Assembly (NCBI RefSeq): GCF_945859825.1 | Contig: NZ_CAMAPC010000004.1 | Span: 273,770 to 337,769 of the forward strand | Direction of reading: 5' to 3' | Length of the DNA stretch: 64,000 nucleotides | Origin: Pseudoalteromonas holothuriae | GTDB taxonomy: Bacteria; Pseudomonadota; Gammaproteobacteria; Enterobacterales; Alteromonadaceae | Shown: positions 46,777 through 55,552 of the stretch, in pieces | How the letters are laid out: every line of letters starts with the position of its first letter | Position numbering within the stretch: the stretch's first letter is position 1 | Translations under genes and position numbers: made by a program | The notes under the pieces: generated by a model | Told to the model about the DNA's origin: nothing | The model's database searches: none | The model's input: only the letters and a program-made list of their open reading frames with translations

Positions 46777-46988
46777 CCTTGGCCAAGGGCTGGAAGAGGT
46801 GCGTTATTCAGGTAACTTTGTTGAGGAGAGCAAACTCCGATGAAACTGAGTGAGGGGAATTAACGCCGAGAAGTCAACAGTGCTTTGCTAAGCTGTTACT
46901 TCGGGCGACTGGGTTGAATCCCAGCGACTGTCACCAAGTGCTGTTCACATTAACAAGCACATAATTTTGGTGGAGAGCTTCTGGTCTT
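46777..46988 (+). ncRNA. Lysine riboswitch (L-box)
   Basis: The aptamer core elements are all present in order: AGAGGTGCG (46795-46803), AGTGAGGGGAA near 46848-46859, CGCCGAGAAG (46864-46873), GGGTTGAATCCC and GACTGTCACC (46926-46935), then a long last hairpin (CACCAA...TTTTGGTG) and GGAGAGC as in other L-boxes. P1 pairs TTGGCCAAGGGCT with AGCTTCTGGTC. It directly precedes dapA, so lysine should switch off the operon. The last hairpin carries an unusual extension, GTGCT...AGCAC. Confidence 0.95.
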
Positions 46989-46996
46989 AAAATAAT

Positions 46997-47020
46997 AAGG
47001 CCATTTGCCTTGTCATTTTT
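46997..47020 (+). terminator. Likely expression platform of the lysine riboswitch
   Basis: AAGGC-CATTT-GCCTT followed by GTCATTTTT right after the aptamer. An alternative stem GGTCTTA...TAAGGCC, using the 3' side of P1, could act as antiterminator. The stem is short, so translational control cannot be excluded. Confidence 0.6.
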
Positions 47021-47100
47021 AAGTCCATTGCTCTTCGAATTTTAACTGTTCGAGGTGTGGACTCACTCCTTACTACGAACACGCTATAAGTTCGCTAGAG

Positions 47101-47985
47101 ATGAAATCACAATTAGATTTATCTGACTATCCGTTATGGACCGCTTTGGTTACGCCCTTTGATGCGCTTAACCAAGTTGACTATGACACATTAAAAACGC
47201 TCGTTAATGAGCAACAACAAGCAAATAATGGCATTTTGCTTTTAGGCAGTACGGGCGAAGGCTTGGCACTTGAAATAAGTGAACAACGCGCTATTGTCGA
47301 ATATGTTTGCTCGCTGTCCCTTTGCGTACCTATCATGGTTGCGGTTGGTGGCTTTAATCTAACGCAGCAATTAGCTTGGCTAGAATTTTGCAATACGCAA
47401 CCCATTGATGCCTACTTACTGGGTTCCCCTTTGTATGCCAAGCCCGGCGAGGTAGGTCAAACCCAGTGGTTTGAAGCACTACTCAGCGCAACTCAACGCC
47501 CTTGTATGCTTTATAATGTCCCTGGTAGAAGTGCCGTCTCCATCACCGCAAAAGTTATAAAAAACTTAACACATTACAATAACTTCTGGGCTATTAAAGA
47601 AGCCAGTGGCGACATTGCAACTTTTGAATCTTTCCGTGATGCCGCACCCAATATTGCTATTTACAGTGGCGATGATGGCTTAATGCCTTATTTTGCTCAA
47701 GCGGGTGCCGCTGGCTTAGTGTCTGTCGCTGCTAATGCATGGCCAGAGCAAACAGCCGAATTCGTTAGGCGCTCTCTTGCTGGTACCTTTCCAAACTTAT
47801 TTACCACTTGGACTGGTGCGGTGAATAGTTTATTTACTGTTGCAAACCCAATTCCCGTTAAAGTGCTAATGCATACCCAAGGCAGGCTTTCAACCCCTAA
47901 TCTACGCCCCCCCTTAACGCACCAAGAGCTGTCATGTAACCAAGCTCTTAACATCGCAAACAAATCAATTTTATCTTGGAATTAA
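47101..47985 (+). CDS. dapA: 4-hydroxy-tetrahydrodipicolinate synthase (riboswitch-controlled DapA)
   Basis: Condenses pyruvate and aspartate semialdehyde, the committed step to lysine. 294 residues with Schiff-base Lys166 (WAIKEASGD), Tyr138 and Arg143 (LYNVPGRS), and the pyruvate loop LLGSTGEG (49-53, Ser in place of the usual Thr). These residues support true DapA activity rather than another member of the family. ATG at 47101 has a weak ribosome site (TAGAG). First gene of a four-gene operon; probably a second dapA copy, the housekeeping one being expected elsewhere. Confidence 0.9.
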   Translation: MKSQLDLSDYPLWTALVTPFDALNQVDYDTLKTLVNEQQQANNGILLLGSTGEGLALEISEQRAIVEYVCSLSLCVPIMVAVGGFNLTQQLAWLEFCNTQPIDAYLLGSPLYAKPGEVGQTQWFEALLSATQRPCMLYNVPGRSAVSITAKVIKNLTHYNNFWAIKEASGDIATFESFRDAAPNIAIYSGDDGLMPYFAQAGAAGLVSVAANAWPEQTAEFVRRSLAGTFPNLFTTWTGAVNSLFTVANPIPVKVLMHTQGRLSTPNLRPPLTHQELSCNQALNIANKSILSWN

Positions 47986-47995
47986 GGCAATTATC

Positions 47996-48736
47996 ATGAG
48001 CTGGTTAGAATTATTAAATAATTTAGAAAATGGCACTGTGCGTGCAGCAACACAAGACGAACAAGGCCATTGGCATGCCAATGTAGAAGTTAAGCAAGGC
48101 ATATTAGAGGCATTTAAAAACGGGACCAATACTGAGTTCCCCGGTGGCTTTGTCGATAAAGATAATCTGGCGCCTCAAGGTTTTTCTGCTAATGCAGGTG
48201 TGCGTATGGTGCCAGGAGGTACGAGTGTGCGTCGAGGTTCTTATGTCGCATCAGGCACTATTATTATGCCACCAGCCTACGTTAATATCGGCGCTTATAT
48301 TGATGAAGGAACTATGGTTGATAGTCATGCGTTAGTAGGCTCTTGTGCTCAGGTAGGCAAAAATGTTCACCTTAGTGCAGCCGTACAATTAGGCGGTGTA
48401 CTTGAGCCAATTGGCGCAAGTCCAGTGGTGATTGAAGATGACGCATTTATTGGCGCAGGGTGCGTGATTGTTGAAGGCGTTGTAGTTAAAAAAGGCGCAG
48501 TACTTGCCCCTGGCGTGCGCTTATCAGCCACGATCCCCGTTTATGATTGCATCAACGAACGAGTACTAGATAAAGGTGAAGCGATCCCTGAAAACGCCAT
48601 CGTGATCCCGGGCTCTCGTCCATCTTCAAGCACTTGGGGCCGCGAGCAAGGTTTAAGCATGTCTTGCGCACTTATCGTAAAATACCGTGATAAGCAAAGC
48701 GATGCCTCATTAGAATTGGAAGAGGTATTACGATAA
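47996..48736 (+). CDS. dapD: DapD-type tetrahydrodipicolinate N-acyltransferase (short form)
   Basis: 246 residues, shorter than E. coli DapD (274) at the N-terminus. The left-handed beta-helix core is clear: GSYVASGTIIMPPAYVNIGA, DEGTMVDSHALVGSCAQVGKNVHLSAAVQLGGVLEP and VIVEGVVVKKGAVLAPGV. In DapD the acyl donor is succinyl-CoA; a related plant/Gram-positive enzyme uses acetyl-CoA, and the truncated N-terminus leaves the donor open. Starts 10 bases after dapA. Confidence 0.85.
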   Translation: MSWLELLNNLENGTVRAATQDEQGHWHANVEVKQGILEAFKNGTNTEFPGGFVDKDNLAPQGFSANAGVRMVPGGTSVRRGSYVASGTIIMPPAYVNIGAYIDEGTMVDSHALVGSCAQVGKNVHLSAAVQLGGVLEPIGASPVVIEDDAFIGAGCVIVEGVVVKKGAVLAPGVRLSATIPVYDCINERVLDKGEAIPENAIVIPGSRPSSSTWGREQGLSMSCALIVKYRDKQSDASLELEEVLR

Positions 48737-49941
48737 TGTCGTTTTTGAGCACCGCACACCGCCAAGTGATTGAACAAATCACACAGACTGAGCAAGCGCC
48801 GTTTTTTGTCTACGACTTAGACGGCTTGCTATCACATTTAAAACCATTGACTGAACAGTCTGTAGTTAAATTGTGGTATGCCGTTAAAGCTAACCCCTTA
48901 TCAAAAGTGATCCAAACTTTAGACAAGGCAGGGTTTGACTTTGATGTTGCAAGCGCTGGCGAACTTGAACAAGTCTTAGCACAAGGCGTTAGTTCATCTC
49001 GGGTGCTCAACACCGGACCTGCTAAATCAAAAAGGCAGATCCAATACTTTTTGTCACAAGGGGTGCGAACCTTTGTGGCAGAAAGTCTCAACCAAGTTAA
49101 TTTACTCAACCTAACTGCCTGCGAACAAGAACTTGAATTACAAGTTTTATTGCGCGTACAGTTACGTTGGCCTGAGGGTGAAAAAAACCCACTAGGTGGT
49201 GATAGTCTGACCCCATTTGGTTTAGGCATTGAACAATGGCAAGCACTCGATATTACTGCTTTTCCAGCTTTGCATTTTACCGGCCTTCATATCTTTCAGT
49301 GGGGTAATATGCTGAGTACCCCAAAGCTGGCAGCACTTTGGTCGCAAATGGTAGAACCACTTGTTACACTAGCAAACACCCTTGGTTTTAAATTAAAGGT
49401 ACTCGACTTAGGCGGTGGGCTAGGTATTCCATATCATGAATACGATGCTTGTTTAAACTGGCCACATTTGCTGGACGCACTCGCCTCTATTAAAGCGGCT
49501 GCTGGGGTTGATGAACTTTGGATGGAACTTGGTCGCTATGCCGTGGGTGAATATGGTCACTATGTTGACCCTATAATAGAGCAAAAACAAAACTATGGAG
49601 AACACCAACTAATTATAGCGGGCGGCATTAATCATATATTACGCCCAGCAGTAACCAGTCAAGATTTTCCATGTGAGTTACTTAGGCAGTCAGCCGCCCC
49701 AACAAGCAGTTACTTGCTGCATGGGCCTTTATGCACCGCACTTGACCATTTAGGTCGCCATAATTTACCCAATGATATGCATGATAACGATTGGATAGTA
49801 TTTAGCCAGTGTGGTGCGTACGGCTTTACTGAGAGTATGCCGTTTTTCTTATGTCACGAGTTACCTGCCGAATATGTGATTGAAAACAATACTGTCAACT
49901 GCATTCGAACGTCGCAGTCCGCAAGTACTTATTTAAGGTAG
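48736..49941 (+). CDS. Fold-III PLP decarboxylase (LysA/BtrK-like)
   Basis: 401 residues of alanine-racemase-fold decarboxylases, with the cofactor Lys51 in LWYAVKANPLSKV, glycine-rich LDLGGGLGIPY near 228 and a C-terminal catalytic Cys in VFSQCGAYGF. The stretch EKNPLGGDSLTPFGLG and HIFQWGNM resembles the BtrK-like branch, which decarboxylates acylated amino acids, more than classical diaminopimelate decarboxylase. In this operon an acyl-diaminopimelate is a plausible substrate. It overlaps the dapD stop by one base. Confidence 0.85.
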   Translation: MSFLSTAHRQVIEQITQTEQAPFFVYDLDGLLSHLKPLTEQSVVKLWYAVKANPLSKVIQTLDKAGFDFDVASAGELEQVLAQGVSSSRVLNTGPAKSKRQIQYFLSQGVRTFVAESLNQVNLLNLTACEQELELQVLLRVQLRWPEGEKNPLGGDSLTPFGLGIEQWQALDITAFPALHFTGLHIFQWGNMLSTPKLAALWSQMVEPLVTLANTLGFKLKVLDLGGGLGIPYHEYDACLNWPHLLDALASIKAAAGVDELWMELGRYAVGEYGHYVDPIIEQKQNYGEHQLIIAGGINHILRPAVTSQDFPCELLRQSAAPTSSYLLHGPLCTALDHLGRHNLPNDMHDNDWIVFSQCGAYGFTESMPFFLCHELPAEYVIENNTVNCIRTSQSASTYLR

Positions 49942-49947
49942 CGTACT

Positions 49948-51060
49948 ATGAACCAAGTGTATCAAGAGAATATTCAAGTTGGAGAAGTCGCCAACGGCCT
50001 GCCTCTGACCATTCCCGTCTATCGAATAAAAGGCAATGGTACTGGTCCTAAAGTGTATATTCAAGCCAATATGCACGGTGCGGAAGTACAAGGCAATGCC
50101 GTAATTTATCAATTGCTGGAGCAATTAAAACAGCAACCACTTACTGCTGATATCACCCTAGTACCTTATGCCAACCCTATTGGATGCAACCAAAAATCAG
50201 GAGAATTTACCTTAGGACGCTTTGACCCAATTACAGGTGTTAATTGGAATCGCATGTACCACAACCATGACGCACTCATTGAGCACTTTGTAGAGCAGCA
50301 CCTTGAAAGCCCTATTAGCGATATTAAGCAACAGTTTCATGCACTACTGGTTGAGAAAACTCAAAACTTGCTTAATGGACCTGCACATAGTATTAATACT
50401 GGAAAGCGTATTGCGTTGAACTTACAACGCTTAGCCCATAATGCAGACATTGTATTAGATTTACATACTGGCCCCATTTCTGCTCAACATTTATATTGCC
50501 CTGAGTATGCACAAAGCAGTGCAAGTTACTTCGATATACCTCACACCCTTCTCATTCCCAATGAATTTGATGGGGCATTGGATGAAGCCAGTTTTTGCCC
50601 TTGGTGGGGTTTGAGTGACGCATTCAAAGCACGAGGCAGAGAAATACCGATATTAGTAGAAGCTTTTACTGTAGAACTTGGCTCACAAGAGAAAATTGAT
50701 TTAGCTCAAGCAGCTGAAGATGCACAAGGAATATTGAGCTACCTGACTCACAAAGAAGTACTATTAAACTCTCCTTATAAACCAAAACCGATGAAACGCT
50801 TTGCCTGTATGCTTAAAGATTATAAAGCATACTATGCCCCTATGGGCGGCATGGTTGAATATAGTGCTGAACTGGGTGCTCACCTAAAAGCAGGTGAACC
50901 CATTGCATATATTCTGAGAATGGAGCGCTACCTGGCCGAGGAGCCACTACATACATTAACTATTGAGCAAGATGCGATTGCTATTTTGCACTTTGCATCC
51001 GCCTCGGTCAATCAAGGCACTGAGCTGTATAAATTCTTTACTCATTACTTTGAATTGTAA
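49948..51060 (+). CDS. M14-family N-acyl amino acid deacylase (AstE/AspA-like)
   Basis: 370 residues of the succinylglutamate desuccinylase/aspartoacylase branch of zinc carboxypeptidases. Zinc ligands H43 and E46 (NMHGAEVQGN) and a third His in IVLDLHTG, with a catalytic Glu in LVEAFTVELG. It likely removes the acyl group added by the DapD homologue, a job done by DapE in the standard pathway. Six bases after the decarboxylase gene; last in the operon. Confidence 0.85.
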   Translation: MNQVYQENIQVGEVANGLPLTIPVYRIKGNGTGPKVYIQANMHGAEVQGNAVIYQLLEQLKQQPLTADITLVPYANPIGCNQKSGEFTLGRFDPITGVNWNRMYHNHDALIEHFVEQHLESPISDIKQQFHALLVEKTQNLLNGPAHSINTGKRIALNLQRLAHNADIVLDLHTGPISAQHLYCPEYAQSSASYFDIPHTLLIPNEFDGALDEASFCPWWGLSDAFKARGREIPILVEAFTVELGSQEKIDLAQAAEDAQGILSYLTHKEVLLNSPYKPKPMKRFACMLKDYKAYYAPMGGMVEYSAELGAHLKAGEPIAYILRMERYLAEEPLHTLTIEQDAIAILHFASASVNQGTELYKFFTHYFEL

Positions 51061-51110: not shown

Positions 51111-51141
51111 GGTGTGGCGGCATGTGCCGCCAGCCTTTTTT
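51111..51141 (+). terminator. Terminator of the lysine operon
   Basis: GG-TG-TGGCGGC-ATGT-GCCGCCA-G-CC followed by six T, about 50 bases after the deacylase stop. Confidence 0.93.
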
Positions 51142-51167
51142 ATCTTTATGTAACAAAGTGCCCACAC

Positions 51168-55327: not shown

Positions 55328-55552
55328 AGCAACCTCTAGGTTAGGCCGTATCGCTCTCCAAACCCGAAGTCTGGCACCATACGTAGTTTATATAAATTAA
55401 TGGACGCGTATTTTATGTAACTCCAAGGCTTTACACAAGTAATAAATCATCAAAATTAGTGTTTTTTGTACAACTAAGCATCAAGCCATCTCGTTATTAG
55501 GCCGTGCTTATAGTACATTAGCCATCTTATAAGTAAGCCCAAAAGGCCCAAG

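What the first reader, a model, noticed from the sequence alone, without database searches (positions are those of the whole stretch)
46777..51060. Riboswitch-controlled lysine operon with possible acylated-intermediate route
A lysine riboswitch drives dapA, dapD, a fold-III decarboxylase and an M14 deacylase as one unit. The operon lacks dapC, dapE and dapF. The decarboxylase looks closer to BtrK-type enzymes acting on acylated amino acids than to LysA. Inferred order: DapA, (DapB), DapD acylation, an aminotransferase, decarboxylation of the acyl-diaminopimelate to N-acyl-lysine, then deacylation to lysine. That would make lysine without draining the meso-diaminopimelate used for peptidoglycan, and would explain why lysine alone controls it. 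Alternatively the genes are simple extra copies feeding the standard route.
Basis: partly seen in the sequence, partly recalled or inferred. Interest (0 to 1): 0.7.

Follow-up and report, generated by a model that had tools for sequence, protein, structure and literature searches.

The report
Possible new acyl-protected lysine route
Some marine bacteria, and one chlamydia-like genome, carry a lysine-sensing gene cassette that looks built to make lysine from an acyl-protected precursor, bypassing the compound their cell walls need; if right, it is an unrecognised variant of a textbook pathway.

Summary
A lysine riboswitch (46786-46988) precedes dapA, dapD, a fold-III decarboxylase (DecX) and an AstE/aspartoacylase-type deacylase (AstX). 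Another dapD, dapE, dapF and a true lysA lie elsewhere in the genome, so this is a second branch. DecX is not LysA: 177.9 bits against a cut-off of 297.9, and a tree puts it with BtrK/SbnH-type enzymes, apart from LysA (99/96). Where 12 of 12 profile-confirmed LysA have the Glu that holds diaminopimelate's far amine, DecX has Thr; that change in Thermotoga LysA lost most diaminopimelate activity. DecX keeps a LysA-like arginine for the far carboxylate. This fits a diaminopimelate with an acylated far amine. dapD adjoins DecX in 21 of 21 sampled loci, AstX in 19. A Chlamydiales bin carries riboswitch-lysC-dapD-DecX and DecX-AstX on two contigs beside DapL, which makes acylation unnecessary unless DecX needs it; no LysA was detected there. 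I favour DapD, an aminotransferase, DecX on N-acyl-LL-diaminopimelate, then AstX releasing lysine (0.66). No biochemistry exists, and genomes G029 and G380 remain unexplained. The operon was tabulated in 2017 with its third gene called lysA.

The parts
46786..46988 (+). Lysine riboswitch aptamer (RF00168)
   Evidence: 94.2 bits, E 1.3e-23, full model 1-182
46982..47100 (+). Leader between aptamer and dapA: expression platform, mechanism unresolved (alternative hairpins 46982-47003 and 46995-47013)
   Evidence: near-identical in the six close relatives looked at, too close for covariation
47101..47985 (+). dapA copy: 4-hydroxy-tetrahydrodipicolinate synthase
   Evidence: TIGR00674 254 bits over cut-off
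47996..48736 (+). dapD copy (dapD2): tetrahydrodipicolinate N-acyltransferase, 40% identical to the genome's other DapD
   Evidence: NF008808 296.7 bits over cut-off 204; TIGR00965 184 under cut-off 375; identity
48736..49941 (+). DecX: fold-III PLP decarboxylase, proposed N-acyl-LL-diaminopimelate decarboxylase; R267, R303, C333-T334
49948..51060 (+). AstX: AstE/aspartoacylase-type zinc deacylase, proposed N2-acyl-L-lysine deacylase; H43, E46, H173, E243, NWNR 99-102
   Evidence: PF24827 98 bits; 3fmc 459 bits; motif positions (their roles are recalled)
51115..51142 (+). Terminator-like hairpin (51115-51132) with T run, likely end of the unit

Best explanation
A lysine-dedicated, acyl-protected branch of the diaminopimelate pathway. 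DapA (with a housekeeping DapB) makes tetrahydrodipicolinate; DapD2 acylates it (succinyl more likely than acetyl, inferred); a housekeeping aminotransferase of ArgD/DapC type makes N-acyl-LL-diaminopimelate; DecX decarboxylates the free L-amino-acid end to N2-acyl-L-lysine; AstX removes the acyl group to give L-lysine. DapE, DapF and LysA are bypassed and meso-diaminopimelate is left for the cell wall. The riboswitch shuts the branch when lysine is plentiful. Shown here: gene order, riboswitch, conservation, phylogenetic side, active-site residues, and the presence of another dapD, dapE, dapF and lysA. Inferred: all substrates, the acyl group, DapB and the aminotransferase, the regulation.
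For: (1) DecX is below the LysA cut-off. Its best solved relatives are 6knh/6knk (PMC7857480 names 6knk as SbnH) and BtrK; LysA structures score lower. A 42-row tree puts DecX with BtrK, SbnH-type and TIGR03099-type enzymes, opposite LysA and ODC types (99/96; DecX clade 100/100). (2) PMC8277567 (passages): in Thermotoga LysA Arg249 and Arg285 bind the far carboxylate and Glu315 the far amino group; E315T lost most diaminopimelate activity and preferred 2-aminopimelate, which lacks that amine. The matching DecX residues R267, R303 and T334 are invariant in 18 of 18 aligned sequences. Of 68 DecX proteins 67 have G[IV]NHxxRP and GPLCT, the other being cut by a contig end (at least three of the 68 are the same contig under two names). 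Twelve of 12 LysA over the profile cut-off have CE at this place. (3) dapD is the next ORF upstream of DecX in 21 of 21 loci and AstX the next downstream in 19 of 21; one of the other two ends at a contig edge. Of 55 named loci found through AstX, 46 have all four genes. Riboswitch in 17 of 21 loci. (4) Chlamydiales genome G394: riboswitch 82.5 bits, lysC and dapD2-type dapD, the start of DecX at the contig edge (38% identity over 47 aa to the window protein, E 6e-9); rest of DecX plus AstX on another contig; DapL 501.8 bits; a single dapD; one decarboxylase match, DecX, at E 1e-10. DapL bypasses DapD, DapC and DapE (PMC3102117, start of abstract in listing). (5) Some enzymes annotated as M14 or succinylglutamate desuccinylase/aspartoacylase cleave beta-Asp-Lys (PMC10206079 passage), which resembles N2-succinyl-lysine if linked through the alpha amine (recalled).
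Against: No enzyme has been assayed. The residue argument is partly shared: the EXGR arginine (R267) is present in all 25 comparators, CT is common to the whole BtrK/SbnH side, and SbnH and BtrK each have an arginine near R303, so only the combination CT plus GxNHxxRP is special to DecX. G380 and G029 have only the dapD2-type dapD, no dapE over cut-off and no DapL match at E 1e-30, so dapD2 could serve diaminopimelate synthesis there; G380 has no AstX beside DecX (elsewhere not searched). AstX relatives occur without DecX upstream in 5 named Alteromonas/Glaciecola-type loci; in 3 more the contig begins at AstX. Four of 21 loci show no riboswitch even at E up to 1. The Chlamydiales evidence is one metagenome bin with the two parts of DecX on different contigs; nine other Chlamydiales genomes have an ordinary LysA. 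DecX must act on an L centre where LysA acts on a D centre, which is inferred from BtrK, SbnH and FigC substrates.
Confidence: 0.66

Rival explanations
1. Extra copies for the standard route: DapA and DapD raise flux, AstX replaces DapE on N-succinyl-LL-diaminopimelate, DapF works as usual, and DecX is a divergent meso-diaminopimelate decarboxylase.
For: AstX and DapE would both remove a succinyl group; G029 has dapD2, DecX, AstX and lysA but no dapE over cut-off. Most Thermotoga LysA E315 mutants kept some diaminopimelate activity (PMC8277567 passages).
Against: DecX lacks the glutamate that holds the far amine and groups away from LysA. dapE is over cut-off in 19 of 21 and lysA in 20 of 21 genomes with DecX, so no gap is being filled there. 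In the Chlamydiales genome DapL already makes LL-diaminopimelate, so DapD plus a DapE substitute would be idle.
Confidence: 0.18
2. DapF bypass: AstX deacylates N-succinyl-LL-diaminopimelate and DecX decarboxylates free LL-diaminopimelate at an L centre straight to lysine.
For: FigC, SbnH and BtrK are described as acting on L-amino acids (PMC7857480 passages); DecX keeps a LysA-like arginine for the far carboxylate.
Against: Free LL-diaminopimelate still carries the far amine, so the missing glutamate is unexplained; with DapL present acylation would be unnecessary.
Confidence: 0.09
3. The unit makes another lysine-related product (an acylated lysine or amine) and the riboswitch only ties it to lysine supply.
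For: Several enzymes on DecX's side serve siderophores or antibiotics (PMC7857480 passages); a TonB-receptor-like gene lies downstream on the same strand in 4 of 21 loci.
Against: The partners that recur in the unit itself are lysC, dapA and dapD; the other recurring neighbours that I scanned (ModF-type ATPase, RsmC, kinase-regulator pair, YbcJ- and DUF454-like, phospholipase A1, M16 peptidases) suggest no common product. Not all neighbours were scanned.
Confidence: 0.05

Closest known systems
Succinylase variant of the diaminopimelate pathway (DapD, DapC/ArgD, DapE, DapF, LysA)
   Same: Same first steps and the same type of acyltransferase
   Different: Proposed order reversed: decarboxylation before deacylation, no epimerase and no LysA
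LysA, meso-diaminopimelate decarboxylase (TIGR01048)
   Same: Fold, PLP site, catalytic Cys, arginines for the far carboxylate
   Different: 177.9 bits against cut-off 297.9; CT in place of CE; separate clade
SbnH (6knh/6knk) and BtrK (2j66)
   Same: CT motif, same side of the tree; described as acting on substrates whose far end is acylated or thioesterified (PMC7857480 passages)
   Different: Neither has the GxNHxxRP motif: SbnH has an arginine one place earlier, BtrK one after a four-residue insertion; they serve a siderophore and an antibiotic
Exosortase-A-associated decarboxylases (TIGR03099)
   Same: CT motif, ELGR, same side of the tree; best NCBIfam score of DecX (187 bits)
   Different: DecX is far below the cut-off of 478; true members score 575-586
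AstE/aspartoacylase family, including cyanophycin dipeptide hydrolases (PMC10206079)
   Same: Zinc-site motifs; some members are reported to cleave beta-Asp-Lys
   Different: AstX is nearest to 3fmc and 3lwu, which are named only as putative; its substrate is unknown
LysW-protected lysine and acetyl-ornithine arginine pathways (recalled)
   Same: Logic: protect the amine early, free the amino acid in the last step
   Different: Different precursors, enzymes and carriers
Pseudoalteromonas riboswitch operon dapA-dapD-lysA-hypothetical1-hypothetical2, Table 1 of PMC5584792
   Same: Evidently the same operon
   Different: That paper takes the third gene as lysA and the next as hypothetical; words beginning with acyl or desuccinylase do not occur in its main text

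Membership tests
Lysine riboswitch RF00168 | Covariance-model score over gathering threshold | tested here: met
   94.2 against 30 bits
LysA (TIGR01048) | Score over curated cut-off 297.9 | tested here: not met
   177.9 bits
LysA (TIGR01048) | Glu after the catalytic Cys, holding the far amino group | tested here: not met
   Thr334, invariant in 18 of 18; CE in 12 of 12 LysA over cut-off
LysA (TIGR01048) | Two Arg for the far carboxylate | tested here: met
   R267 and R303 invariant; R267 is family-wide and so not diagnostic
LysA (TIGR01048) | Placement in the LysA clade | tested here: not met
BtrK/SbnH-type decarboxylases of end-acylated amino acids | CT motif and placement on that side of the tree | tested here: met
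   the tree program warns of long branches, so the nearest sister is unsure
BtrK/SbnH-type decarboxylases of end-acylated amino acids | Activity on an acylated substrate | not testable with these tools
   needs enzyme assay
Exosortase-A-associated decarboxylase (TIGR03099) | Score over curated cut-off 478.45 | tested here: not met
   187.3 bits
DapD (NF008808) | Score over cut-off 204 | tested here: met
   296.7 bits
DapD strict model (TIGR00965) | Score over cut-off 375.4 | tested here: not met
   184.4 bits
DapA (TIGR00674) | Score over cut-off 206.15 | tested here: met
   254 bits
AstE/aspartoacylase superfamily (PF24827) | Domain score over cut-off 25; HxxE, NWNR, LDLH, ExGS motifs | tested here: met
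   98 bits; 73 of 74 AstX-type proteins have all four motifs, the other has MDLH
Curated AstE/DoeB-type deacylases (NCBIfam) | Match to a curated equivalog model over cut-off | tested here: not met
   only DoeB TIGR02994 at 37.5 bits, cut-off 402.7
N-acyl-lysine deacylase | Hydrolysis of N2-acyl-L-lysine | not testable with these tools
   needs enzyme assay

The most novel reading that the evidence does not exclude
A further variant of the diaminopimelate route: lysine is made by decarboxylating N-acyl-LL-diaminopimelate and then removing the acyl group, so lysine synthesis is chemically separated from the meso-diaminopimelate pool. The riboswitch-controlled unit has moved between distant bacteria, including a Chlamydiales lineage that otherwise makes diaminopimelate with DapL.
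Probability: 0.6. Interest if true: 0.85.

Novelty: new variant of a known kind. Interest (0 to 1): 0.72.

Why it matters
Four lysine routes from aspartate are described as sharing LysA on meso-diaminopimelate as the last step (PMC8277567 passages), so lysine and cell wall draw on one pool. A route that keeps the acyl group until after decarboxylation would separate the two, would explain why lysine alone controls the unit, and would mean that genes named lysA and succinylglutamate desuccinylase in Pseudoalteromonas, Thalassotalea and relatives are misnamed. It would suggest a function for two solved structures named only as putative (3fmc, 3lwu) and offer a lysine-production route that does not drain the cell-wall precursor.

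Tried and rejected
Looked for a lost canonical pathway: not so. lysA is over cut-off in 20 of 21 genomes with DecX (G096, 93% complete, lacks it) and dapE in 19 of 21, so no simple replacement argument is possible in the gammaproteobacteria.

Tested DapL (TIGR03542) as the explanation for G029 and G380: no match at E 1e-30.

Checked my own labels for circularity: nine Chlamydiales comparators that I had called LysA by their CE motif score 363-522 bits over the LysA cut-off of 297.9; five of the seven CTPLD proteins are TIGR03099 members at 575-586 bits (two not scanned); ODC and siderophore labels rest on motif and place only.

The four loci without a riboswitch match (L060, L062, L064, L068) were searched again at E up to 1: no lysine riboswitch. 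Expression platform: overlapping hairpins and a longer stem, mechanism undecided.

Origin of the Chlamydiales contigs: G+C of the three contigs agrees (0.369, 0.375, 0.361), but six of eight proteins scanned had no Pfam match, so contamination of the bin is unlikely but not excluded.

Mended on re-reading: I had first counted both arginines as diagnostic and written that SbnH and BtrK lack the second; one search shows R267 in all comparators and an arginine near R303 in both. For this the odds went from 0.68 to 0.66 (novel case 0.62 to 0.60, standard-route rival 0.16 to 0.18).

Papers. Passages only: PMC5584792, PMC8277567, PMC7857480, PMC3766115, PMC5885031, PMC3223726, PMC10206079, PMC10687191. 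Listing only: PMC3102117. PMC290268 and PMC9974463 are not held. Listings looked through for an acylated route: 20 of 107 shown; 19 of 19; 20 of 58; no papers; the phrases were narrow. That 8ein and 8eip, the next solved relatives of AstX, are cyanophycin dipeptide hydrolases is recalled and unchecked.
Full report
WHAT IS THERE. The window belongs to a 5.18 Mb genome in 97 contigs; the closest named loci in a scan with AstX are from Pseudoalteromonas. At 46786-46988 lies a full-length lysine riboswitch (94.2 bits), then four same-strand genes with gaps of ten bases or fewer: dapA, dapD (here dapD2), a fold-III PLP decarboxylase (DecX) and an AstE/aspartoacylase-type hydrolase (AstX). A terminator-like hairpin at 51115-51132 probably closes the unit.

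A SECOND BRANCH, NOT THE ONLY ONE. The same genome has another dapD (384 bits), dapE (556 bits, plus two DapE-like paralogues), dapF (321 bits) and lysA beside dapF (531.5 bits), two further dapA-like genes of which one is over cut-off, and a second lysine riboswitch (90.5 bits) upstream of an aspartokinase-like gene (AA_kinase and ACT domains). An aminotransferase and dapB were not searched for.

DecX IS NOT LysA. It scores 177.9 bits against a LysA cut-off of 297.9. Its best solved relatives are 6knh/6knk (6knk is called SbnH in PMC7857480, passages) and BtrK; LysA structures follow with lower scores. In a maximum-likelihood tree of 42 proteins, 17 of them DecX, DecX is one clade (100/100) on the side of BtrK, SbnH-type and TIGR03099-type enzymes; LysA and ODC types lie on the other side (99/96). 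The program warns of long branches, so the exact sister of DecX is unsure. PMC7857480 itself puts FigC, SbnH and BtrK in one broad clade with LysA.

WHAT THE ACTIVE SITE SAYS. In Thermotoga LysA, Arg249 and Arg285 bind the far carboxylate of diaminopimelate and Glu315 its far amino group; most Glu315 mutants kept reduced activity, and E315T lost most of it and worked on 2-aminopimelate, which has no far amine (PMC8277567, passages). DecX has R267 in ELGR, R303 in LRP, and Thr334 after the catalytic Cys333; all are invariant in 18 of 18 aligned sequences. Twelve of 12 LysA over the profile cut-off have CE. Two limits: the EXGR arginine is present in all 25 comparators and so says little, and CT is shared by all enzymes on the BtrK/SbnH side. 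The combination of CT with the LysA-like GxNHxxRP is what sets DecX apart. A far-carboxylate arginine with no far-amine acid is what a diaminopimelate with an acylated far amine would need. Equivalence rests on alignment with 2p3e and motif spacing; the Thermotoga sequence itself was not aligned.

CONSERVATION. In 394 genomes drawn from the order, 21 (the window's own included) have a DecX orthologue at 48% identity or more, and the next match is at 34%. dapD2 is the next ORF upstream in 21 of 21, though with gaps of about 250 and 430 bases in two, and AstX the next downstream in 19 of 21; the exceptions are G380 and a locus that ends in DecX. dapA is present in 15. In 8 loci of one genus a gene that clusters with lysC leads the unit; one of the 8 was scanned (664 bits, aspartokinase III). 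A lysine riboswitch is found in 17 of 21 loci; four have none even at E up to 1. Of 55 named loci found through AstX, some of them the same contigs as above, 46 have all four genes, 8 have AstX without DecX (in 3 of these the contig begins at AstX) and one is the Chlamydiales locus. dapD falls into two classes by score: dapD2 (286-303 bits) in 22 of 22 genomes with DecX, dapD1 (over 370 bits) in 18 of 22.

THE CHLAMYDIALES CASE. A Chlamydiales bin (G394, L121) carries on one contig a lysine riboswitch (82.5 bits), lysC of aspartokinase III type (539 bits) and a dapD2-type dapD, the genome's only dapD, 52-55% identical to dapD2 and 46% to the window genome's other DapD. The contig edge encodes the start of DecX (47 aa at 38% identity, E 6e-9). 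Another contig holds the rest of DecX followed by AstX. The genome has DapL (501.8 bits), which makes LL-diaminopimelate without acylation (PMC3102117, start of abstract in a listing; PMC5885031, passages, say that Chlamydia lacks dapD, dapC, dapE and LysA). DecX is its only match to a DecX query at E 1e-10. The same search found 13 of 232 genomes with a match: this one, nine with LysA (each over the profile cut-off) and three with ODC-type motifs; since those LysA were seen at E 2e-13 or better, a LysA present in this assembly would probably have been seen. If AstX were only a DapE substitute, the cassette would repeat what DapL does; if DecX needs an acylated substrate, it makes sense as an acquired lysine branch. 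The weak points are a single bin and two contigs.

AstX. It has the zinc-site motifs of its superfamily (H43, E46, H173, with E243 and NWNR at 99-102; positions, roles recalled) and is 56% identical to 3fmc, which is named only as putative. [quoted passage not shown] if the lysine is linked by its alpha amine (recalled), that is N2-succinyl-lysine with one extra amino group. AstX relatives in Alteromonas and Glaciecola types may do something else.

AGAINST. There is no biochemistry. G029 and G380 carry dapD2 and DecX but neither dapD1 nor a dapE over cut-off, and no DapL match at E 1e-30, while both keep lysA; how they make diaminopimelate is open, and use of dapD2 for it is possible. G380 has no adjacent AstX. 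The stereochemical demand, an L centre instead of the D centre of LysA, is inferred.

KNOWN OR NEW. The Pseudoalteromonas operon is listed in PMC5584792 (Table 1, passages) as dapA-dapD-lysA-hypothetical1-hypothetical2. The listings (partly shown) and the empty searches gave no acylated route in the held library; most subscription papers are absent from it, and PMC290268 and PMC9974463 could not be read. I class it as a new variant of a known pathway, supported by comparative evidence and cheaply testable by rescue of an E. coli lysA mutant.

Noticed in passing
L140:2353-2529 (-), L121: A lysine riboswitch upstream of lysC-dapD-DecX in a Chlamydiales bin; I did not check whether lysine riboswitches are known in that phylum.
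   Followed up: partly
L068 (G029), L060 (G380): Two gammaproteobacterial genomes have lysA but neither the usual dapD nor a dapE over cut-off, and no DapL match at E 1e-30; how they make diaminopimelate is open.
   Followed up: partly
L013, L014 (own genome C2:277840-278958 and C8:164936-166045): Two extra DapE-like proteins (391 and 360 bits) besides the canonical one; the first lies downstream of what by eye looks like an adenylation-type enzyme and a methyltransferase.
   Followed up: no
L113, L114, L116-L119, L123, L124: AstX relatives (44-49% identity) in Alteromonas and Glaciecola types without DecX in view; in L113 directly after a ThiF-family gene (244 bits), and in L116 after one that looks alike.
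   Followed up: partly
L004 (own genome C1:214673-215791): Another fold-III decarboxylase with an NTCIEKD motif, 107.7 bits to the LysA model, of unknown role.
   Followed up: no
L128-L135, L139: Nine Chlamydiales genomes carry a LysA over the profile cut-off (363-522 bits), although Chlamydia itself is reported to lack it (PMC5885031).
   Followed up: no
L041, L042, L044, L046, L048: Exosortase-A-associated decarboxylases (TIGR03099, 575-586 bits), about 30% identical to DecX, sharing its ELGR and CT motifs; substrate unknown.
   Followed up: no
window 55332-55383 (-): L31 ribosomal-protein leader of gammaproteobacteria (61.8 bits).
   Followed up: no
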